DNA of 10,287 nucleotides, taken from NCBI GenBank assembly GCA_031279895.1, contig JAITHR010000025.1, positions 1-10,287 on the forward strand. The letters run 5' to 3'. Each line of letters begins with the position of its first letter. Position 1 is the first letter of the stretch. The notes beneath the pieces are model-generated. The model ran no database searches. It was not told the origin of the DNA and was given only the letters and a program-made list of their open reading frames with translations. Below, one piece after another: positions 237 to 10,287 of the stretch. Source of the DNA: Spirochaetaceae bacterium. GTDB taxonomy: Bacteria > Spirochaetota > Spirochaetia > Treponematales > Breznakiellaceae. The position numbers and the translations under genes are program-made.

Positions 237-262
237 GTTTGGGGGGACTGGTCCCCCCAAAC
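237..262. repeat. Perfect G-tract palindrome (11-bp stem)
   Basis: The left arm gtttggggggac (237-248) and right arm gtccccccaaac (251-262) are exact reverse complements. As a hairpin this gives an 11-bp stem with a 4-base loop (ctgg). A second run of six G (232-237) directly precedes it, so the top strand has G6-TTT-G6. There is no T run just after the stem (the next is tttt near 279), so a classical terminator is not clear. It could stop or protect the tRNA transcript, or be a recombination or repeat end. Confidence 0.6.
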
Positions 263-324
263 TTCCGTGCCGCCCTGTTTTAATAAGTCATGGTGCGCGG
301 AAGTAAACAGACCCCGCCCGCTGC

Positions 325-362
325 GAGCCGCACCGCAAGACGCTTATGGAACCGCCGGAGGC
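325..362 (+). repeat. 38-base dispersed repeat, copy A (inverted partner at 3608-3645)
   Basis: The 38 bases from gagccgcac to gccggaggc match the reverse complement of 3608-3645 with four substitutions and no gaps. The shared blocks are gagccgcac, gacgcttat and gccggaggc. This ties the tRNA/sigma spacer to the trpD/glycosyltransferase spacer and shows that members of the repeat family occur in both orientations. Confidence 0.7.
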
Positions 363-386
363 GGTGAGCCGCGTATCAAGATGCTT

Positions 387-415
387 TTGAAACAGCCGGA
401 GGCGGTGAAAATAAT
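387..415 (+). promoter_or_regulatory. Possible sigma-70 promoter for the sigma factor gene
   Basis: TTGAAA (387-392) and AATAAT (410-415) are 17 bases apart, each one mismatch from consensus. Transcription would start near 423, leaving a leader of roughly 215 bases. The element overlaps repeat-derived DNA, so the match may be chance. An alternative -10, TATACT at 522-527, has no -35 at the right distance. Weak call. Confidence 0.25.
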
Positions 416-3472: not shown

Positions 3473-3616
3473 ACAGCCTCCGCCGTCTCCGACGGCTTCA
3501 GCATGGCCGCCTGTTGTTTCAAATTGGTGCAACACCCTGTCCGTTTACGTTACCGGCTACTGTTAAGGCGCGGCTACGCTTCGCGCAGCCTCCGCCGTCT
3601 CCGACCAGCCTCCGGC
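3473..3616 (+). repeat. Dispersed structured repeat, copy 1
   Basis: The copy starts with cagcctccg and the palindrome ccgtctccgacgg (3483-3495). It continues into the 43-base core gcatggccgcctgttg...cctgtccg (3501-3543) with the hairpin GGTG-CAA-CACC, then after about 20 diverged bases the block aggcgcggctacgct plus tcgcgcagcctccg. The core aligns without gaps to copies at 4959, 10021 and 10165. The last block folds as ggctacgc/gcgcagcc with one mismatch. Confidence 0.75.
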
Positions 3617-3645
3617 TGTTCTATAAGCGTCCTGCCGTGCGGCTC
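3608..3645 (-). repeat. 38-base dispersed repeat, copy B (inverted relative to 325-362)
   Basis: The reverse complement of this segment matches 325-362 at 34 of 38 positions without gaps. It lies directly after copy 1 of the larger repeat and before the 21-bp array. Confidence 0.7.
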
Positions 3646-3671
3646 ACGTATTTCGCTTACTACACGCCGCC

Positions 3672-3777
3672 GTAAAACATCAATGTTTTGCTCCGAAACA
3701 TCAATGTTTTGCCTCAGAACATCAATGTTTTGCCGTAAAACATCAATGTTTTGCCTCAGAACATCAATGTTTTGCCG
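3672..3777. repeat. 21-bp palindromic tandem array, five units
   Basis: The invariant 14-base core aacatcaatgtttt begins at 3676, 3697, 3718, 3739 and 3760, an exact 21-base period. The linking 7 bases vary: gctccga, gcctcag, gccgtaa, gcctcag, gccgcgg. Each core can form an AT-rich hairpin, up to aaaacat/atgtttt. The array ends 17 bases past the stop codon of the minus-strand glycosyltransferase, so in that transcript it would form serial hairpins each followed by T-rich sequence. A terminator or mRNA-protecting role is possible but unproven. Spacers of 7 bases rule out a CRISPR array. Confidence 0.85.
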
Positions 3778-3794
3778 CGGAACTAGGGAGGAAA

Positions 3795-4892
3795 TTACAG
3801 GCGCCGGCGGTGCGAGACGAGCTCGCGTATCCCCTCGGTAAAAGCCTCCGTCGAAAAGCGCCGTACCTGTCGGGTAAAGGGTTCGCGGCTGGCAAAACGC
3901 GCCTCTTCGTTTTCAAACCGGTCCATAGCCCCTATAAGGGAGGCGGGGGTCTGGCTGTCAAAAAAGAAGCCCGTGTACCCCTCCCGCACCGTGTCCAGCG
4001 CCCCGCCCTTCCGGTACGCGATAACCGGACAGCCCGCGGCGTTGGCCTCGACCGGAATAATCCCGAAATCCTCGATGCCCGGAAAAAGGAGCGCCCTGGC
4101 CCGGGAAAAATAGCCCGCAATCTCCGCGTCTGAAACCCGACCGGTAAACGTAACGAGACCGGATTTTTCCCAGCGCCGAATATCCCGCGCCTTCGCGCCC
4201 GCGCCGGCCACCACCAGCCTTCTTCCAGAGGCAGCGCACGCCTCAATCGCCAGATCCGCCCGTTTATAGCCCGCAAGCTGGCCGAAATACAGGTAAAAAT
4301 CCTCCGGCTTCCGCTCGACCTCCAGAAACCTCTCAATGGAAACCGGCGGGAACACCACCGCGGCCTCCCGATTGTACACGCGCCGGATACGCTTGGCCAC
4401 ATAGGTCGAATTGGCCGCGAAACAATCCACGAGGTTGGCCGAAACGCTGTCCCACACCCGCAGGCGCGGGATAAGGCGGCGCATAAAAAAGCGCGTGGCC
4501 CTGTTCGCCCCGTCAAAATACTGGTGGTACATATCCCAAAGGTAGCGCATGGGGCTGTGGCAGTAGCAGAGGTGGTAGGCGTCCGGGTTCGGCACCACCC
4601 CTTTGGCAGGGCCGGCCTCGCTTGAGATGATAAGGTCATAGGGCTGCATATTAAAAGACAGAAGCGCGTCGGGCATAAGCGGCATATAGGTCTGATAGAG
4701 GGAGCGGGCAAAGGGCAGGCGGTTAATGGGGGACGTGTACACCCGCCGGCTCCGTATAAGCGGCGAAACGCCCTTCGGGTTATACACGTGGGTATATAAA
4801 TCCGCCTCCGGGAACATACTAAGGAGCGCTTCAAGCACCTTTTCCCCGCCCCGCATGGTAACAAGCCAGTAATGAACAAGCGCGACTTTCAT
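3795..4892 (-). CDS. Glycosyltransferase family 4 (group 1, GT-B fold)
   Basis: A 365-residue cytoplasmic, probably membrane-associated sugar transferase using a nucleotide-sugar donor. The N-terminal Rossmann domain opens with MKVALVHYWLVTMRGGEKVLEAL, the GGEK glycine-rich loop (15-18) seen in the WbaZ/mannosyltransferase-like branch, and carries CYCHSPMRYLWDMY (109-122). The C-terminal domain has YFGQLAGYKRADLAIEA (202-218) and the donor-binding E-x7-E motif E274/E282 in EDFGIIPVEANAAGCPVIA. It starts at ATG 4892 with an AGGA site about 7 bases upstream and a TATAAA -10-like element at 4924-4919 (minus strand) lacking a clear -35. It stands alone, not in a polysaccharide cluster, so acceptor and product cannot be told; surface glycan or glycolipid synthesis is the generic inference. 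Both sides are bounded by copies of the same dispersed repeat in the same orientation. Confidence 0.9.
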   Translation of the reverse strand: MKVALVHYWLVTMRGGEKVLEALLSMFPEADLYTHVYNPKGVSPLIRSRRVYTSPINRLPFARSLYQTYMPLMPDALLSFNMQPYDLIISSEAGPAKGVVPNPDAYHLCYCHSPMRYLWDMYHQYFDGANRATRFFMRRLIPRLRVWDSVSANLVDCFAANSTYVAKRIRRVYNREAAVVFPPVSIERFLEVERKPEDFYLYFGQLAGYKRADLAIEACAASGRRLVVAGAGAKARDIRRWEKSGLVTFTGRVSDAEIAGYFSRARALLFPGIEDFGIIPVEANAAGCPVIAYRKGGALDTVREGYTGFFFDSQTPASLIGAMDRFENEEARFASREPFTRQVRRFSTEAFTEGIRELVSHRRRL

Positions 4893-4938
4893 ACCCCCAT
4901 CCTAGCGCAAAGCCTTTTTTTATACTACGCCGCCCCCG

Positions 4939-5056
4939 CCCCGTCTCCGACGGTTCCGGCATGGCCGCTTGGTGTTTGATAATGGTGCAACACCGTGTCC
5001 GACCCGCAATCTGGTTGCTGCGTAGGCGCGGCTGCGCTCGCGCAGCCTCCGGCTGG
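4939..5056 (+). repeat. Dispersed structured repeat, copy 2
   Basis: The copy begins with the palindrome ccgtctccgacgg (4941-4953). The 43-base core gcatggccgcttggtg... is at 4959-5001 with the hairpin GGTG-CAA-CACC intact, followed after a diverged stretch by aggcgcggctgcgct and cgcgcagcctccggctg. Here the last block folds perfectly as ggctgcg/cgcagcc around ctcg. The core differs from copy 1 at about six positions and has the same length. The right end runs into the long inverted repeat. Confidence 0.72.
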
Positions 5057-5144
5057 TTCAAAAGCTTCCCGCGTCGCCTGTCGGCGGACGTTGACCGCTT
5101 CGAGGCGCAACGCGGGAAGCTGTTTAAAACAGCCGGAGGCTGCG
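5041..5144. repeat. Long imperfect inverted repeat (about 34-base arms)
   Basis: The left arm 5041-5074 (cgcagcctccggctg... ending agcttcccgcgt) is the reverse complement of the right arm 5110-5144 (acgcgggaagct... ending cagccggaggctgcg). Matches are 15 and 12 bases at the two ends, with a short mismatched AT-rich stretch between them. The 35-base middle contains cgcct/aggcg, which extends the stem. The whole could extrude as a cruciform or form a long RNA hairpin. It lies about 50 bases upstream of the ABC operon promoter. Confidence 0.8.
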
Positions 5145-5192
5145 TCGGAGACGGCTGCGGAGGCTGCGGAGATTAGGGGAAAAAGTAAAAAT

Positions 5193-5221
5193 TTGCAAAC
5201 AGGACGGGTATTTGATATACT
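5193..5221 (+). promoter_or_regulatory. Extended -10 sigma-70 promoter of the ABC transporter operon
   Basis: The -35 is TTGCAA (5193-5198), the spacer is exactly 17 bases, and the -10 is TATACT (5216-5221) preceded by TGA (5213-5215), an extended -10. Transcription would begin near 5228, leaving a leader of about 14 bases before the ATG at 5242. The -35 is embedded in the perfect palindrome TTTGCAAA (5192-5199), which could be half of an operator. That part is speculation, since no regulator gene is in the window. Confidence 0.6.
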
Positions 5222-5241
5222 TAGGGAAGCAAGGGGGAGAT

Positions 5242-6726
5242 ATGGCGGAGGTTCTGGCGGAGATTAGGGGAATAACCAAACAGTTTCTGGGAGTTACGGC
5301 GCTCAAAGACGTTTCGTTCACCATTAACAAGGGAGAAATCCACGCGCTCATTGGTGAAAACGGCGCCGGCAAGTCAACCATGATAAAGATTCTGTCCGGC
5401 CTCTACACGCCGGAAACCGGCGGAACCGTCGTCTTTGACGGGGAACCCTTCAAAACCTATGCGCCGCTCGAATCCCTCCACCGCGGCATCGTGGTCATTT
5501 ACCAGGATTTCTCCCTGTTTTCAAATCTTTCGGTTATGGAAAATATCGCCCTGGGACCCTATGTCAAAGACGGGGTCTCCCTCGTTGACTGGAAAGCTAT
5601 GGAAGAAATCGCCCGCGCCGCTCTCGAAAAACTCCAGTTTCAGCTTGATATACACGCGCCGGTCGGGTCCCTGTCCGTGGCCAAACAGCAGATTGTCGCC
5701 ATTGCCAGAGCTTTGGCAAACAGGGCGCGGCTCCTTGTCCTTGACGAGCCGACTTCGGCGCTCTCCAAGGGAGAGGTGGCCAAGCTGTTCGATATTATGC
5801 GCTCCCTTAAAGCGGAGGGCATCTCGCTGCTCTTTATAAGCCATAAACTTGACGAGCTTTTCGCGGTCTCCGACCGGTTTACCGTGTTTCGGGACGGGAG
5901 GTGCATGGGAACCTTTAACAAAGAGGAGCTTGACGGGGATAAACTTATCTCCCTTATGGTGGGGCGGAAAATCGTGTACAAGATTTTTGATAAAAACCGG
6001 CGGGAAGAGCCGCTCCTCGAAGTAAAAGGGCTTTCCAAAGCCGGACAGTTCAAAGAAATAAGTTTCTCCCTCCACAAGGGAGAGATTCTGGGCGTTACCG
6101 GTCTTGTGGGCGCCGGAAGAACCGAAGTGGCCCAGTCCCTGTTCGGCCTTAACCCGCCCGATTCAGGCACGTTTTCGCTCGAAGGCAGGCTGCTCTTTAT
6201 TCGGAACCCCAAAGACGCGGTGGCCAAAGGTATCGGGTACGTGCCGGAAAACCGGCTCCACGAGGGGCTCGTGCTGGGGAAGCCTGTAAAAGACAACCTC
6301 GTTATCACGGTCTTAAGGGCGATTTCCAACAGGCTGGGACTGGTGAATCGGGATAAGAAGGCGGGTTTGACAAAAGAGTGGATGGAAAAGCTCAATATAA
6401 AGCCACCGCTCCCGGACCTTGCGGCCTCGAAACTCTCAGGCGGCAACCAGCAGCGGGTGGTGCTGGCGAAATGGCTTGCCACCGCGCCGAAGCTCCTCAT
6501 TGTTGACGAGCCGACTAACGGCATCGACGTGGGGGCAAAGACGGAAATCCATCAGATCCTGCGGGACCTGGCAGCCGGCGGCATGGGGATTATGGTTATC
6601 TCGTCGGAACTGCCGGAGATACTCGCGATTGCGGACCGCGTTATCGTCATGCGCCGCGGCAGAATAACCTGCGACCGGTTCTGCGAGGGGCTTAACCAGG
6701 AAGATCTGCTTGCCAAAGCACTCTAG
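5242..6726 (+). CDS. CUT2-type sugar ABC transporter ATP-binding protein (RbsA/LsrA family)
   Basis: A 494-residue cytoplasmic subunit with two fused nucleotide-binding domains, energising import through the two permeases downstream. Domain 1 has Walker A GENGAGKST (38-46), a relaxed signature LSVAKQQ (144-150), Walker B LLVLDEP (164-170) and switch H201. Domain 2 has a degenerate Walker A GLVGAGRTE (287-295), a consensus signature LSGGNQQ (398-404), Walker B LLIVDEP (418-424) and VISSELPE in place of a switch histidine. This asymmetry is normal for the RbsA family, with domain 1 likely the main ATPase. The frame can be extended to a TTG at 5212, but that lies inside the promoter. ATG 5242 has AAGGGGGAG just upstream and matches the family N-terminus. 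It is the first gene of a four-gene operon in the lsrACDB order. Confidence 0.93.
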   Translation: MAEVLAEIRGITKQFLGVTALKDVSFTINKGEIHALIGENGAGKSTMIKILSGLYTPETGGTVVFDGEPFKTYAPLESLHRGIVVIYQDFSLFSNLSVMENIALGPYVKDGVSLVDWKAMEEIARAALEKLQFQLDIHAPVGSLSVAKQQIVAIARALANRARLLVLDEPTSALSKGEVAKLFDIMRSLKAEGISLLFISHKLDELFAVSDRFTVFRDGRCMGTFNKEELDGDKLISLMVGRKIVYKIFDKNRREEPLLEVKGLSKAGQFKEISFSLHKGEILGVTGLVGAGRTEVAQSLFGLNPPDSGTFSLEGRLLFIRNPKDAVAKGIGYVPENRLHEGLVLGKPVKDNLVITVLRAISNRLGLVNRDKKAGLTKEWMEKLNIKPPLPDLAASKLSGGNQQRVVLAKWLATAPKLLIVDEPTNGIDVGAKTEIHQILRDLAAGGMGIMVISSELPEILAIADRVIVMRRGRITCDRFCEGLNQEDLLAKAL

Positions 6727-6846
6727 GGGGCGCGGCAAGAAAACGAAAACACGCGGTACGGAATAAAAACGAAATAAAAGAATAAAAAGGAAGTATAAAA
6801 ATAAATACGGAAGCGAAAGAAGCATGAAGCACAAGGAAAAAATTAT
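6727..6846 (+). other. A-rich untranslated spacer inside the ABC operon
   Basis: 120 bases, strongly A-rich and T-poor on the sense strand from about 6740. There is no hairpin with a T run and no clear promoter, so the permease is expected to be co-transcribed with the ATPase. The AAGGAA near 6834-6839 is the ribosome site of the next gene. A 13-codon frame from ATG 6824 overlaps that ribosome site but lacks a convincing site of its own. Confidence 0.5.
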
Positions 6847-7839
6847 ATGGGTGTACAAAAGATAAAAGAGCTGCCTATTTTATTTGTATTGATAGGGATT
6901 TCCCTCGTCATTACCATTGCCAATCCCTCGTTCGCCACGCTGGAAAACGTTCTCGACCTGCTCAAGGGCAACCTGACCCTGGCGATTATGGCGCTGGGTA
7001 TGCTGGTGGTTATACTCACCGGCGGCATTGACGTATCCGCGGCGTCGATTATTACGGCGGTTACGGTTACGACCGGCTATTTCCTGATACATATTTCCTC
7101 AAATCTGGCGGCGGCCCTCCTCGTGGCGGTTTTAACCGGAACCGTTATGGGGCTGGTGAACGGCCTTCTGGTGGCGCGTCTCAAAATCCCGCCGATCGTA
7201 ACGACCCTCGGAACCATGAGTATCATCCTGGGTATCGTGCTGTACCTCACGAACGGAAACTGGATGACCGGCATTCCAGAGAACTTTATCCGGTTCGGAC
7301 GCCTCACAATCCTGCGCATCCCCCTTAAAAGCGGGCGGGTCATCGGCTTTCCCGTACAGAGCCTCTTTCTCATCGTCTCCGCGGCGCTGACGTGGTTCCT
7401 CTTAAAAAGAACGGTTACGGGCCGGGGCGTCTACGCCATCGGCGGGAACCTTGAATCCGCCGAGCGGATGGGCTTCAAGTCAAACCGTATTCTCGTGTTC
7501 GTGTACGCCTACGAAGGGTTTCTCATCGGCCTTGCCGCGGTGTCCCACACGTCCATCATGCGCCAGGTTGACCCGAACGCCTTTCTCGGCTTCGAGATGC
7601 AGGTCATAGCCGCGGTGGTCTTAGGCGGCGCGAGCACCTTGGGCGGAACCGGCAGCGTTTCGGGAACCCTGTTGGGGGTGGCGATATTCTGCGTCATCAA
7701 CAACGGCCTCATCCTGATGAAGATACCCACTTTCTGGCAGAAAATCGTGGTCGGCATCATCATCACAGGTTCTATCGCGATTGATATGGCGCAGAAAAAG
7801 CGCCTTGAGCGGAAACAAATCCGCGTCGATGTGGAGTAA
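6847..7839 (+). CDS. CUT2 sugar ABC transporter permease 1 (BPD_transp_2 family, LsrC/RhaP-like)
   Basis: A 330-residue inner-membrane protein with about nine or ten hydrophobic segments, for example 10-25, 46-59, 87-108, 117-134, 172-187, 216-235, 252-262, 270-291 and 299-313. Family marks are GGIDVS (59-64), NGLLVARLKIPPIVTTLGT (105-123), the cytoplasmic YAIGGN (196-201) that contacts the ATPase region, and the VIAAVVLGGASTLGGTGS block (253-270). The stretch LKIPPIVTTLGT...GNWMTGIPENF resembles E. coli LsrC as I remember it (LKIPAIVATLGT...GKWIEGLPAEL). The C-terminus is short and charged. ATG 6847 follows AAGGAA by about 7 bases. It probably forms a heterodimer with the next gene product. 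Confidence 0.93.
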   Translation: MGVQKIKELPILFVLIGISLVITIANPSFATLENVLDLLKGNLTLAIMALGMLVVILTGGIDVSAASIITAVTVTTGYFLIHISSNLAAALLVAVLTGTVMGLVNGLLVARLKIPPIVTTLGTMSIILGIVLYLTNGNWMTGIPENFIRFGRLTILRIPLKSGRVIGFPVQSLFLIVSAALTWFLLKRTVTGRGVYAIGGNLESAERMGFKSNRILVFVYAYEGFLIGLAAVSHTSIMRQVDPNAFLGFEMQVIAAVVLGGASTLGGTGSVSGTLLGVAIFCVINNGLILMKIPTFWQKIVVGIIITGSIAIDMAQKKRLERKQIRVDVE

Positions 7840-7845
7840 CGTATC

Positions 7846-8841
7846 ATGCGGCATAATCTACCGGTCTTTCACGCGAAAGCGAAAACCCTGCTTAAAACCA
7901 ACGAAGGCATCCTGTTCGCGCTGTTTATCGTTGTCTTTACCCTTATGGCGATACTTTCTCCCGGGCGCTTCCTAAGCCGCGGGAACCTGCAGTCAATGGC
8001 GTACCAGCTGCCGGAGTTCGGGATTCTCGCGTTATCCATGACCCTGGTTATCGTCGCGGGCGGGATAAACCTCTCCCTGACTTTCAGCGCCACCCTTTCC
8101 ATGATAATAGGCGGCGTCGCGATGGCCGCGGTTACGAAAAACGGCGGATCCCCGGGGGCGGCCATAGGCGCGGGCGTAAGCCTCATGCTTTTTACCGCGC
8201 TTTTGTGCGGCGCCCTTAACGGGTTCGTGGTGGTCTTCCTGGGGGTTACGCCTATGATAGCCACCCTGGGAACCGCCACGCTCTTCGAGGGAATAAGCCT
8301 TAACATCACCAAAGGCGGCGCCGTGTCCGGTTTCCCCGCGCAGTTTCTCGGCATCGGAAACGGCGTCTTCCTGGGGGTTCCGATACCCCTGTATATCTTT
8401 GTGGCGGTTATGCTGGGGACTCACGTGCTCCTTGAGCGGAGCCGCTTCGGAAGTCAGGTCTACATGACCGGCAGCAACCCGAAAGTTACCCGCTACTCCG
8501 GCATACAGGTCAGAACCGTGCTGTTCTGGGTGTATATCATAGCCGGCTTTCTCGCGGGCGTGGCGGGCATACTCATGGCCTCCCGCTACAACTCGGCCAA
8601 AGAGTCCTACGGCTCCTCGTACCTGCTCCAGTCCGTTGCCGCGTCGGTTCTCGGCGGCACGGACATAAACGGCGGGGAAGGAAAAATCGTCGGAACCGTC
8701 ATCGCGGTAATGATCGTGCAGATCATCTCAAGCGGCCTTAACATCTACGGCGTGAACCGGTACCTCACCACTATCGTTATGGGCGGGATACTGCTCGCGG
8801 TTCTGGCCGTTAAGTTCTTTGCCAACCGGACCGGACGCTGA
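7846..8841 (+). CDS. CUT2 sugar ABC transporter permease 2 (BPD_transp_2 family, LsrD/RhaQ-like)
   Basis: A 331-residue inner-membrane protein, the likely partner of the preceding permease. It has a charged N-terminus (1-20), then hydrophobic segments at about 21-38, 57-71, 81-96, 104-133, 136-150, 178-195, 225-245, 281-299 and 308-325. Family marks are GGINLS (72-77), TPMIATLGTATLFEGI (135-150), YMTGSNPKVTRYSGI (206-220) and SVAASVLGGTDINGGEGKIVGT (263-284). It starts only 6 bases after the previous stop, and its ribosome site (GTGGAG, 7831-7836) lies in the last codons of the upstream gene, so translation is probably coupled. The two permeases clearly differ in sequence, so they are not a recent tandem duplication. 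Confidence 0.93.
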   Translation: MRHNLPVFHAKAKTLLKTNEGILFALFIVVFTLMAILSPGRFLSRGNLQSMAYQLPEFGILALSMTLVIVAGGINLSLTFSATLSMIIGGVAMAAVTKNGGSPGAAIGAGVSLMLFTALLCGALNGFVVVFLGVTPMIATLGTATLFEGISLNITKGGAVSGFPAQFLGIGNGVFLGVPIPLYIFVAVMLGTHVLLERSRFGSQVYMTGSNPKVTRYSGIQVRTVLFWVYIIAGFLAGVAGILMASRYNSAKESYGSSYLLQSVAASVLGGTDINGGEGKIVGTVIAVMIVQIISSGLNIYGVNRYLTTIVMGGILLAVLAVKFFANRTGR

Positions 8842-8865
8842 ACCGGCTGGCGTTACTATGGAACG

Positions 8866-8908
8866 ATCCGAAAGTATTTTCGGATAATGTTATATTTTTT
8901 ATTTTTTT
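8866..8908 (+). promoter_or_regulatory. Hairpin plus T-rich tract before the binding-protein gene: attenuator or internal promoter
   Basis: atccgaaa (8866-8873) and tttcggat (8878-8885) form an 8-bp stem with loop gtat, followed after a few bases by T-rich sequence (8890-8908). This resembles a weak intrinsic terminator inside the operon, or a barrier protecting the binding-protein mRNA. The same stretch holds TGT-TATATT (8888-8896), an extended -10 match without a good -35, so a separate promoter starting near 8903 is the alternative. Either would change the level of the binding protein relative to the membrane subunits, as is common in such operons. Confidence 0.45.
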
Positions 8909-8925
8909 AGGAGGAAGGTTTTATT

Positions 8926-9918
8926 ATGAAAAAAACCGTTGTTTTGGCTTTAGCCGTCGTATTGTGCGCCGGCGCGGGATGGGCGAAGGGCGGCGCGGCA
9001 AAGAGCGGCGCGAAGGTTCCCACGGTGGTCGTGATGCCCAAACTGGTGGGTATCCCCTATTTCAACGCTTCTCAGAAAGGCGCTGAACAGGCCGGGAAAG
9101 ACCTGGGGATAAACGTCATCTACACCGGCCCCGCCACGGCGGACGCGGCGGAACAGGTGCGGATGCTCGAAGACCTTATCAGCAAAGGGGTTGACGCGAT
9201 CTGCGTGGCGCCCAATGACGCGGCGGCGCTTACGCCGGTGCTTCAGAAGGCAAAGACCGCGGGGATTAAAATCCTCGACTGGGACACGTCGGCGGATCAA
9301 TCGGTGGTCGACCTTTCGGTGCACCAGATTGACGACAAGCAGTACGGCGAGCATATCTGGGATCTTCTCGTTCAGGAGATGGGGGATACCGGAGACTACG
9401 CGATCCTTACCGGCGGCCTCTCTGCGGCCAACCTCAATACGTGGATAGACCACGGCATGGCCTACGCGAAGACCAAGTATCCTGGGCTTAACCTGGTGAC
9501 CGACAAGGTTCCCACTGACGAAAAACAGCAGGTGGCGTACTCGAAAACCCTCGACCTCATTACCGCGTACCCGAACCTCAAGGGCATTATCGGGGTAAGC
9601 ACCCCCACGCCCATCGGCGCGGCCCAGGCGGTTCAGGAAAAAGGGCTGAAAGACACGATCGCGGTGGTCGGCACCGCCCTCCCCACGGACTCGGGGCCCT
9701 ACCTTGAAGACGGGTCCCTGCGGGTAACGACCCTGTGGGATCCGGCGAAGCTGGGGTATCTTACGGTGGTGCTGGCAAACAACCTGCTTAAAGGCCAGAC
9801 CCCGACAAACGGACAGGACGTTCCCAACGTCGGGAAAATCACGGTAAACGGCAAAATCGTCGTCATGGGTCCGCCCACTGATTTCACCAAAGCCAATTAC
9901 AAAAACTTCTCGTTCTAG
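8926..9918 (+). CDS. Periplasmic sugar-binding protein of the ABC transporter, LsrB/RhaS-like (Peripla_BP_4)
   Basis: A 330-residue exported receptor that would deliver ligand to the permeases. It has a signal peptide (KK, hydrophobic 4-16, likely cut after GWA, residue 20; C14 is a poor lipobox match because L precedes it). The mature protein follows LsrB closely by eye: MPKLVGIPYF (37-46), AGKDLGINVIYTGP (56-69), GIKILDWDTSAD (113-124), TAYPNLKGIIGV (213-224), LWDPAKLGYLTV (270-281). Against the S. typhimurium LsrB autoinducer-2 contacts recalled from memory, K39 and D120 are kept. The positions aligned to D166, Q167, P220 and A222 are instead N169, L170, V224 and T226. Ligand specificity is therefore open: a furanose or pentose, rhamnose or an AI-2 relative. 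ATG 8926 has the strongest ribosome site in the window, AGGAGGAAGG (8909-8918), fitting an abundant binding protein. Confidence 0.92.
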   Translation: MKKTVVLALAVVLCAGAGWAKGGAAKSGAKVPTVVVMPKLVGIPYFNASQKGAEQAGKDLGINVIYTGPATADAAEQVRMLEDLISKGVDAICVAPNDAAALTPVLQKAKTAGIKILDWDTSADQSVVDLSVHQIDDKQYGEHIWDLLVQEMGDTGDYAILTGGLSAANLNTWIDHGMAYAKTKYPGLNLVTDKVPTDEKQQVAYSKTLDLITAYPNLKGIIGVSTPTPIGAAQAVQEKGLKDTIAVVGTALPTDSGPYLEDGSLRVTTLWDPAKLGYLTVVLANNLLKGQTPTNGQDVPNVGKITVNGKIVVMGPPTDFTKANYKNFSF

Positions 9919-9921
9919 CCC

Positions 9922-10029
9922 CAGCCTCCGGCTGTTCCGGCATGGCCGCAGCCTCCGGCTGTTTCAGCATGGCCGCAGCCTCCGGCTGTTTCAGCATGGC
10001 CGCAGCCTCCGGCTGTTTCAGCATGGCCG
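9922..10029 (+). repeat. 27-bp tandem array, four units
   Basis: Units start at 9922, 9949, 9976 and 10003. Each reads cagcctccggctgtt, then tcagcatggccg (units 2-4) or ccggcatggccg (unit 1). Units 2-4 are identical to one another. Each unit contains the dyad CAGCC-TCC-GGCTG. The array begins three bases after the binding-protein stop codon and merges into copy 3 of the larger repeat, whose core shares the gcatggccgc end. Its position and serial dyads resemble 3'-end REP-type elements that block exonucleases; that role is inferred. Confidence 0.85.
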
Positions 10030-10287
10030 CCTGTTGTTTCCGAATGGTGCAACACCCTGTCCGGTGAGCGAATCAGTGCTGTTGAGGCGCGGCTACGCTC
10101 TCGCGCAACGGCAGGCGGTTCGGGAGCGCCGCGTTGTTGTGCGCGGCAGCCTCCGGCTGTTCCGGCATGGCCGCCTGTTGTTTCCGAATGGTGTAACACC
10201 CTGTCCGGTGAGCGAATCAGTGCTGTTGAGGCGCGGCTACGCTCTCGCGCAACGGCAGGCGGTTCGGGAGCGCCGCGTTGTTGTGCG
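10003..10287 (+). repeat. 144-bp tandem duplication (dispersed repeat copies 3 and 4)
   Basis: 10003-10146 and 10147-10287 align without gaps at a 144-base offset, with the second unit cut by the window end. I count only three differences (10018/10162, 10020/10164 and 10050/10194). Each unit contains the 43-base core (10021-10063 and 10165-10207) shared with copies at 3501 and 4959, the hairpin GGTG-nAA-CACC, the block gaggcgcggctacgct and ctcgcgc, and the dyad GGCG...CGCC. The single core difference, C to T, falls in the hairpin loop. The near identity implies a recent duplication or ongoing gene conversion; more units may follow. Confidence 0.88.

What the first reader, a model, noticed from the sequence alone, without database searches (positions are those of the whole stretch)
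3473..10287. Dispersed structured repeat family that bounds each transcription unit
A 43-base core (3501, 4959, 10021 and 10165) recurs in the same orientation with no length change. It is followed at similar distance by a second block, aggcgcggct..cgct with cgcgcagcctccg. Copies 1 and 2 bracket the glycosyltransferase gene; copies 2 and 3 bracket the ABC operon. A fixed core plus diverged linker suggests a selected or mobile element (MITE- or REP/BIME-like) rather than random GC-rich spacer, and no transposase is present in the window.
Basis: partly seen in the sequence, partly recalled or inferred. Interest (0 to 1): 0.72.

Follow-up and report, generated by a model that had tools for sequence, protein, structure and literature searches.

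The report
Hairpin-capped mosaic repeat in termite spirochaete
A spirochaete genome carries hundreds of copies of a short DNA repeat built from interchangeable hairpin caps and a fixed core, scattered between genes and once inside a gene, which looks like a recent burst of self-spreading DNA rather than a marker of gene units.

Summary
In detail: four 43-base cores at 3501, 4959, 10021 and 10165, same strand, second block 64-65 bases on. The core is a genome-wide family: 503 copies in the 1.88 Mb assembly, none in 194 other genomes of its family or 391 others sampled from its phylum. Copies sit between genes (7 of 135 in called genes, about 90 expected), but in either orientation, and only 28 of 127 sampled gene gaps hold one. 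'Bounds each transcription unit' is not supported.

Each unit is a palindromic cap (mainly CCGTCTCCGACGG or CAGCCTCCGGCTG) plus a tail that often stops at a few preferred points where the next cap begins, giving head-to-tail arrays. Tandem neighbours share core variants but not caps, so caps seem exchanged as cassettes. The closest sister has one cap on a different tail and lacks the core. One array lies in frame inside a RelA/SpoT-family gene.

The only RAYT-type transposase found lacks the tyrosine and has no copy within 3 kb; caps lack GTAG tags. Best reading: a selfish BIME/BOX-like mosaic element, spread by a lost or unseen enzyme and reshuffled by hairpin-driven recombination. New variant of a known kind; mechanism inferred.

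The parts
3483..3495 (+). cap H2 (palindrome CCGTC-TCC-GACGG) of copy 1
   Evidence: cap typing
3501..3543 (+). 43-base core, copy 1
3544..3588 (+). tail blocks C and D (AGGCGCGGCTACGCTTCGCGC) of copy 1
3606..3635 (+). cap H1 (CAGCC-TCC-GGCTG) followed by half of an F element
4941..4953 (+). cap H2 of copy 2
4959..5001 (+). 43-base core, copy 2
5002..5042 (+). tail blocks C and D of copy 2
5043..5142 (.). F dimer: inverted element, cap H1 + F arm, 39-base spacer, F arm, inverted cap H1
   Evidence: (I11, I13)
5142..5154 (-). inverted cap like H2 (1 mismatch) closing the copy 2 block
9922..10002 (+). three 27-base truncated units (cap H1 + link + GCATGGCCG), beginning 3 bases after the binding-protein stop codon
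   Evidence: (D1)
10003..10015 (+). cap H1 of copy 3
10021..10063 (+). 43-base core, copy 3
10064..10143 (+). tail blocks C, D and E of copy 3
10147..10159 (+). cap H1 of copy 4
10165..10207 (+). 43-base core, copy 4 (144-base tandem of copy 3, 97% identical)
   Evidence: (D4)
10208..10287 (+). tail of copy 4, running to the end of the contig
   Evidence: contig length

Best explanation
This is a non-coding, non-autonomous, hairpin-capped mosaic repeat that multiplied (or took its present form) in this species after it split from its sister. Each unit begins with a short perfect palindrome (cap) and runs into a tail (core, C, D, E) that often ends at a few preferred points, where the next cap starts; units therefore stack head to tail. 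Shown: high copy number, restriction to this genome among those searched, intergenic placement, sites lacking it in the sister, caps that differ between otherwise similar neighbours, preferred end points, one in-frame array in a gene. Inferred: caps fold into hairpins in single-stranded DNA, replication or repair switches template at these hairpins, and this makes the arrays and exchanges caps between copies and between two element families (core units and F dimers); first dispersal to new sites used a trans-acting transposase that is now lost or lies in the unassembled quarter of the genome. The elements are most likely selfish and tolerated in gaps, without a general role in transcription.
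For: 503 core copies, reversed-pattern control 0, 0 in 194 other family genomes, 0 in 391 others drawn from the phylum. 7 of 135 cores in called genes against about 90 expected. The cap before the core is one of two exact palindromes in 102 of 135 cases (58 and 44), a longer GC palindrome in 24, a chimera of the two in 6, other in 3; two cap pairs change on both sides in 26 and 27 of 63 distinct sequences, which I had chosen for at least 3 of 5 cap pairs. The next cap starts at offset 32, 34, 36, 43, 73-74 or 84-86 from the core start in 65 of 86 cases; the six commonest offsets hold 54 of the 80 between 20 and 140, at most 23 in 5000 uniform draws, a crude control. 82 of 84 D blocks have a core upstream, so tails are cut short, not interrupted. 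57 tandem neighbour pairs: same core hexamer 0.30 (random 0.10), same cap 0.35 (random 0.33). Sister G005 (TrpD 91%, binding protein 93% identical) has the cap CAGCCTCCGGCTGTTTCA on a different 62-base tandem tail and no core. Sites lacking it in G005: after the binding-protein gene and between two genes still adjacent there (L053/L195).
Against: No mobilising enzyme and no target duplication were found. Template switching is inferred from junctions only. Five strands from three copies fold no better than 20-47 of 200 shuffles each (z -0.6 to -1.3), and an automatic alignment of 80 units gave no compensated pair. The TGTTG/CAACA core stem is conserved without double changes. Cap type and core hexamer are weakly linked (37 of 2000 shuffles reach the observed value), so exchange is not fully free. 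Before the ABC operon G005 is not bare: it has a cap and its own repeats. All 41 sampled stretches hold a core; they are not a random sample.
Confidence: 0.5

Rival explanations
1. A REP/BIME family mobilised in trans by a RAYT (Y1 tyrosine transposase), as in Enterobacteria and Pseudomonas.
For: Short GC-rich palindromes in high copy between genes; a RAYT-like gene exists in the genome and RAYT-type matches are common in relatives (32 of 58 genomes searched, own included). In sister G005 a RAYT gene sits at the trpD site where this genome has array 1.
Against: GTRG within 6 bases of the cap in 3 of 254, CGTC-like tag in 19 of 254. The single RAYT-like gene scores 66 bits (cut-off 80), lacks the tyrosine aligned to residue 115 of 4er8, and the nearest cap or core on its 16.7 kb contig is more than 3 kb away. 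The RAYT gene of G005 has no cap or core beside it on the 2.45 kb read. Relatives G001, G003 and G004 have 11, 15 and 4 RAYT matches but neither the core nor the cap-plus-F pattern.
Confidence: 0.17
2. A MITE family cut from a lost DDE-type insertion sequence whose terminal inverted repeats are cap plus F arm; core units are a derivative.
For: F dimers: 16 found in the sample, 11 with a spacer of exactly 41 bases and about 30-base inverted ends.
Against: At least 4 of the 16 F dimers carry two different standard caps at their ends (L068, L069 at 6005, L078 at 3419, L084). The gene-filled intervals between F arms 0.4-3.5 kb apart listed held no gene that looked like a transposase by eye (not searched by profile). 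No target duplication seen. Core units are not bounded by one fixed inverted repeat.
Confidence: 0.2
3. A host-selected transcription element (terminator, attenuator or boundary) placed at gene ends.
For: Intergenic placement; conserved core; hairpins; 20 of 50 array ends next to a gene 3' end lie within 60 bases of it, against 12 of 54 at gene 5' ends.
Against: No orientation preference in same-strand gaps (19 against 19); also in divergent gaps and inside a gene; absent at two compared sites in the sister; 0 of 194 other family genomes. Genes on the cap side outnumber those on the tail side (66 against 38, summed); I put this down to contigs breaking in the repeated tails, untested.
Confidence: 0.08
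4. Assembly or binning artefact.
For: The genome is a fragmented 292-contig assembly; 72 of 132 cores lie between the last called gene and a contig end.
Against: 53 of 132 cores lie between two called genes, on many contigs; one array lies within a single gene whose parts on both sides align to relatives.
Confidence: 0.02

Closest known systems
BIMEs / REP (palindromic units), GTAG type with RAYT
   Same: High-copy GC-rich palindromes between genes, mosaic of palindromes and short motifs, alternative stems with complementary changes.
   Different: No GTAG tag, no RAYT flanked by the caps, caps in one direction within an array. [quoted passage not shown] Nunvar 2010 (PMC2817692, start of abstract and passages seen) describes alternating orientation in BIMEs.
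CGTC-tagged REPs
   Same: Reported from Spirochaetes among five phyla and without a dedicated transposase (PMC3733652, same reading).
   Different: Published stems 8-9 bp with AT first pairs and mostly CCA tails; here 5-bp stems, TCC loop, TTTCA-like link; CGTC-like tag near 19 of 254 caps.
BOX elements of Streptococcus pneumoniae
   Same: Modular, variable number of internal modules, restricted to close relatives, judged parasitic; some large ones hold open frames (PMC3049150, abstract and one section read).
   Different: BOX has boxA and boxC with inverted ends and target duplication; here the cap varies and tails end at several points. That boxA and boxC are always outermost is recalled.
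Rickettsia palindromic elements (RPE)
   Same: Palindromic repeat inserted in frame in a protein gene (as summarised in PMC3733652).
   Different: Here 1 of 72 sampled arrays, a tandem of three units; sequences were not compared.
MITEs (RUP, NEMIS, ERIC and the like)
   Same: F dimers have about 30-base inverted ends and, in 11 of 16, a 41-base spacer.
   Different: Unequal caps at the two ends in some, no target duplication detected, no related transposase seen in the sample.

Membership tests
GTAG REP / RAYT system | GT(A/G)G tetranucleotide at the foot of the palindrome | tested here: not met
   2 of 128 H1 and 1 of 126 H2 caps have GTRG within 6 bases on either side
GTAG REP / RAYT system | RAYT gene flanked by inverted copies of the repeat | tested here: not met
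   one RAYT-like gene found; nearest cap or core more than 3 kb away on its contig; about a quarter of the genome is not assembled
GTAG REP / RAYT system | RAYT with catalytic tyrosine | tested here: not met
   gap at the tyrosine column aligned to 4er8 residue 115; HxH motif present. That residue 115 is catalytic is recalled
BIME | mosaic of palindromic units and short motifs in intergenic space | tested here: met
BIME | palindromes in alternating orientation | tested here: not met
   1 of 72 arrays has cores in mixed orientation; F dimers do face each other
CGTC REP | CGTC/TGTC/CCTC tag at one end, 8-9 bp stem | tested here: not met
   tag within 6 bases in 19 of 254; 5-bp cap stems
MITE | terminal inverted repeats | tested here: inconclusive
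   F dimers yes (16 found); core units not bounded by one fixed pair
MITE | target site duplication | tested here: inconclusive
   compared sites L053/L195 and binding-protein 3' side are too diverged outside genes
BOX-like modular repeat | modules present in variable number | tested here: met
   27- and 144-base tandems in the window; spacings such as 50-53, 57, 63, 91-93, 105, 156 and 171 in the sample
BOX element proper | fixed outer boxA and boxC modules | tested here: not met
   caps interchangeable, several end points; no BOX sequence was compared
Known RNA family | match to an Rfam model | tested here: not met
   in the window only a tRNA at 17-98 reaches a gathering score

The most novel reading that the evidence does not exclude
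The palindromic caps are the moving parts: a process acting on hairpins (an enzyme in trans, or hairpin-guided template switching) replaces whole terminal palindromes on unrelated repeat families, so that one pool of caps serves core units and F dimers here and another tail in the sister species. This would be a cap-switching economy of repeats; I did not see it described for REP, BOX or MITE families in the parts of three papers that I read.
Probability: 0.15. Interest if true: 0.65.

Novelty: new variant of a known kind. Interest (0 to 1): 0.47.

Why it matters
How short bacterial palindromic repeats spread without a visible transposase is open. Here one genome holds hundreds of similar copies with readable junctions, a close sister that shares one cap but not the core, and neighbours that seem to have changed cap faster than core. 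That makes cap exchange testable by strain comparison. The in-frame array in a RelA/SpoT-family gene shows that such arrays can be carried in a coding sequence.

Tried and rejected
RAYT mobilisation: disfavoured for the copies at hand; a short motif near RAYT starts (GGGACAGAG) occurs 14 times in the 290 kb sample and does not resemble the caps. Duplication of a cap as target site: neighbouring caps agree no more than random. Nested insertion of units into tails: 82 of 84 D blocks keep their core upstream. Conserved RNA fold: weak. A general open reading frame through the units: not so; 68, 55 and 16 of 90 units are open in the forward frames and 27, 25 and 4 of 90 in the reverse frames, against about 0.41 in base shuffles. 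C block as a covarying hairpin: no clear partner columns. Core in phages, plasmids or viral contigs: no match (own and near records may be left out there). Papers on repeats in spirochaete or termite Treponema genomes: the listings showed none on this element; this is no proof that none is in print.

Rows dropped: alignment A1 used 80 of 88 units; alignment A2 used 63 of 66 listed units, three left out when the list was typed, and the 66 had been chosen for at least 3 of 5 paired cap positions.
Full report
What was checked. The window is one whole contig (G000:C46, 10287 bases) of a 292-contig, 1.88 Mb, 74.7% complete genome. The best matches of its TrpD among named genomes are Spirochaetaceae and Treponema records; that the sample names are those of termite guts is recalled, not from a call. 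G005 is very probably the genome of record JAITHF010000130.1, Spirochaetaceae bacterium Pc512_bin53: the contig lengths agree at 9950. The window holds a tRNA, a sigma-70 gene, trpC, trpD, a group 1 glycosyltransferase gene, and an ABC operon.

The four cores are as described. Genome-wide, 386 places match a 36-base core pattern and 503 a 31-base pattern, both with up to 3 mismatches; the reversed-pattern control gives 0 both times. The counts are lower bounds: about a quarter of the genome is missing, and 72 of 132 cores in the sampled stretches lie between the last called gene and a contig end. The 31-base pattern is absent from 194 other genomes of the family and 391 others drawn from the phylum. 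A 128-base query found nothing in 57 relatives. A profile of cap plus core gave 185 matches in the own genome (150 of 3977 candidates scored), 69 weaker ones in G005 (best E 2.4e-5) and none in the other four genomes of the genus.

Anatomy. I read 41 stretches, 290 kb in all; every one holds a core, so they are not a random sample. A unit is: cap palindrome, link (TTTCA or similar), core GCATGGCCGCCTGTTGTTTC-variable hexamer-GGTGCAACACC, then C and D (AGGCGCGGCTACGCTTCGCGC); E (GTGCGTTGTTGTGCG) follows D in 50 of 84 cases. Of 135 caps before a core, 58 are exactly CCGTCTCCGACGG, 44 exactly CAGCCTCCGGCTG, 24 longer GC palindromes (mostly with a link ending GGCAC), 6 chimeras joined at the TCC loop, and 3 other. 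On 63 distinct sequences two cap pairs change on both sides together (26 and 27 sequences), and no shuffle of 500 reached the covariation score. These sequences had been chosen for at least 3 of 5 paired cap positions, and the result reflects two main cap types, not many independent events. The core stem TGTTG/CAACA is 97.5% paired but has no double change; the alternative GGTG/CACC stem has one. Single copies fold only slightly better than shuffles, and an automatic consensus fold of 80 units found no compensated pair.

Arrays. 72 arrays: 37 single, 35 tandem, one with mixed orientation. After a core the next cap (four exact cap sequences sought) begins at offset 32 (6), 34 (3), 36 (3), 43 (10), 73-74 (18) or 84-86 (25) in 65 of 86 cases; in 49 further cases no such cap followed within 260 bases of the core start. 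The six commonest offsets hold 54 of the 80 between 20 and 140; 5000 uniform draws reached at most 23, a crude control. Of 84 D blocks 82 have the core upstream. Tails are thus cut short and followed by a new cap; they are not interrupted and resumed.

Cap exchange. Among 57 tandem neighbour pairs the variable hexamer is the same in 30% (10% at random) and mean core identity is 0.894 (0.865 at random), so neighbours are related; the cap class is the same in 35% (33% at random). Of 17 pairs with the same hexamer 14 differ in cap class; 7 of these 14 involve a cap I could not class, so the strict figure is 7 of 10. About 6 of the 57 pairs would share a hexamer by chance. Across 129 units cap, hexamer, C type and D type are mostly unlinked: shuffles reaching the observed value are 248 (cap-C), 561 (hexamer-C), 1270 (C-D) and 189 (cap-D) of 2000; cap and hexamer are weakly linked (37 of 2000).

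A second element, F (cap plus TTTCATAAGCTTCCCGC), forms inverted pairs: 16 in the sample, 11 with a spacer of exactly 41 bases; at least 4 of the 16 have two different standard caps at their ends. One is at window 5043-5142, with equal caps. The cap-plus-F pattern (up to 2 mismatches) occurs 388 times in the own genome, 53 times in G005, and once each in three of the other 193 family genomes. The 20 of 53 G005 places listed read GCCTCCGGCTGTTTCAGCAGC or ...AATAGC: the same cap on another tail, which forms 62-base tandem units. Cap counts in samples: own 290 kb H1 128, H2 126; G005 256 kb H1 45, H2 0; G001-G004, 55-65 kb each, 0 of either.

Placement. 7 of 135 cores, 8 of 128 H1 and 7 of 126 H2 caps fall in called genes; 90, 86 and 84 would be expected at the coding fraction of 0.67. 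Of the 7 cores, 3 are in one RelA/SpoT-family gene, 1 at a gene end and, by eye, 3 in frames extended upstream of the gene proper. Gene calls were made by a simple codon score and miss some genes. 28 of 127 gaps between neighbouring called genes hold a core, in all three gap types, with 19 forward and 19 reverse cores in same-strand gaps. Genes on the cap side outnumber those on the tail side (66 against 38, summed), which I put down to contigs breaking in the tails; untested.

Comparison with the sister. TrpD is 91% and the binding protein 93% identical in G005. In the window, adjacencies without the repeat (trpC-trpD and the four ABC genes) are kept in G005. The glycosyltransferase, which has repeats on both sides here, lies on another G005 contig with no trpD on its 3' side; on its 5' side only 196 bases to the contig end could be read. 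This is too little for a test. After the binding-protein gene the array starts 3 bases past the stop codon; G005 has no cap, core or F in the 671 bases read. Before the ABC operon G005 has one cap and repeats of its own. Between two genes adjacent in both genomes (L053 and L195) this genome has an array of one core and two shortened units, and G005 a gap of about 60 bases without cap or core. No target duplication could be read. Upstream of trpD both genomes share an A-run followed by C(C)ACCCCC; then comes array 1 here and a RAYT gene in G005.

Transposase. The own genome has one Y1 match, in a 197-residue open frame, 66 bits against the REP-associated transposase model with a cut-off of 80. 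It has the HxH motif but a two-residue gap where the other four aligned sequences have a tyrosine, the column aligned to residue 115 of TnpAREP 4er8; that this is the catalytic tyrosine is recalled. The nearest cap or core on its 16.7 kb contig is more than 3 kb away.

In-frame array. On contig C191 an 871-residue frame matches HD_4, RelA_SpoT and TGS and holds three core units in the reverse direction, 156 bases (52 codons) apart. Aligned relatives L316, L317, L318 and L320 lack the insert, and in them too this part of the HD domain is poorly conserved, by eye. In general the units are not open: 27, 25 and 4 of 90 in the three reverse frames. In L089 the last about 30 residues and the stop codon of a pyrimidine-nucleoside phosphorylase gene lie in cap repeats.

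Verdict. A real, species-restricted, intergenic mosaic repeat; not shown to bound transcription units. It works like BIME or BOX repeats but fails the defining tests of RAYT-linked REPs. Template switching at hairpins is my inference; a lost or unassembled transposase for first dispersal is likewise inferred.

Noticed in passing
L087 (G000:C191) 253-2865: RelA/SpoT-family gene with three in-frame element units (period 156 bases) inside its HD-like domain; four aligned relatives lack the insert.
   Followed up: yes
L089 (G000:C210) 1429-2775: Pyrimidine-nucleoside phosphorylase gene whose last about 30 residues and stop codon come from cap repeats.
   Followed up: partly
window 3669-3783: 21-base tandem repeat with palindromic AAACATCAATGTTTTGC units between array 1 and the glycosyltransferase stop (D5).
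   Followed up: no
window 238-261: Palindrome-like TTTGGGGGGACTGGTCCCCCCAAA; a similar palindrome TGGGGGAACCGGTTCCCCCA recurs in the sampled stretches.
   Followed up: no
window 320-405: Inverted F-like and cap-like motifs downstream of the tRNA.
   Followed up: no
L141 (G005) about 1930-2451: RAYT gene with the tyrosine present, next to trpD at the site where this genome has array 1; its contig ends there.
   Followed up: partly
genome G030 (same family): 55 RAYT-type matches in one genome (55 of 130 candidates scored); such numbers are unusual for RAYTs as far as I recall.
   Followed up: no
G005 stretches: Sister genome has its own abundant repeats, e.g. GGTTGTGACTAA and CCCCCTGCGGGG, and 62-base cap units in arrays, four of which start after GGTTTGGGGG.
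   Followed up: partly
G000 stretches: Further palindromic repeats, e.g. CAAAAGGTATACCTTTTG and ACGTTCTTACGGAATTCCGTGACG.
   Followed up: no
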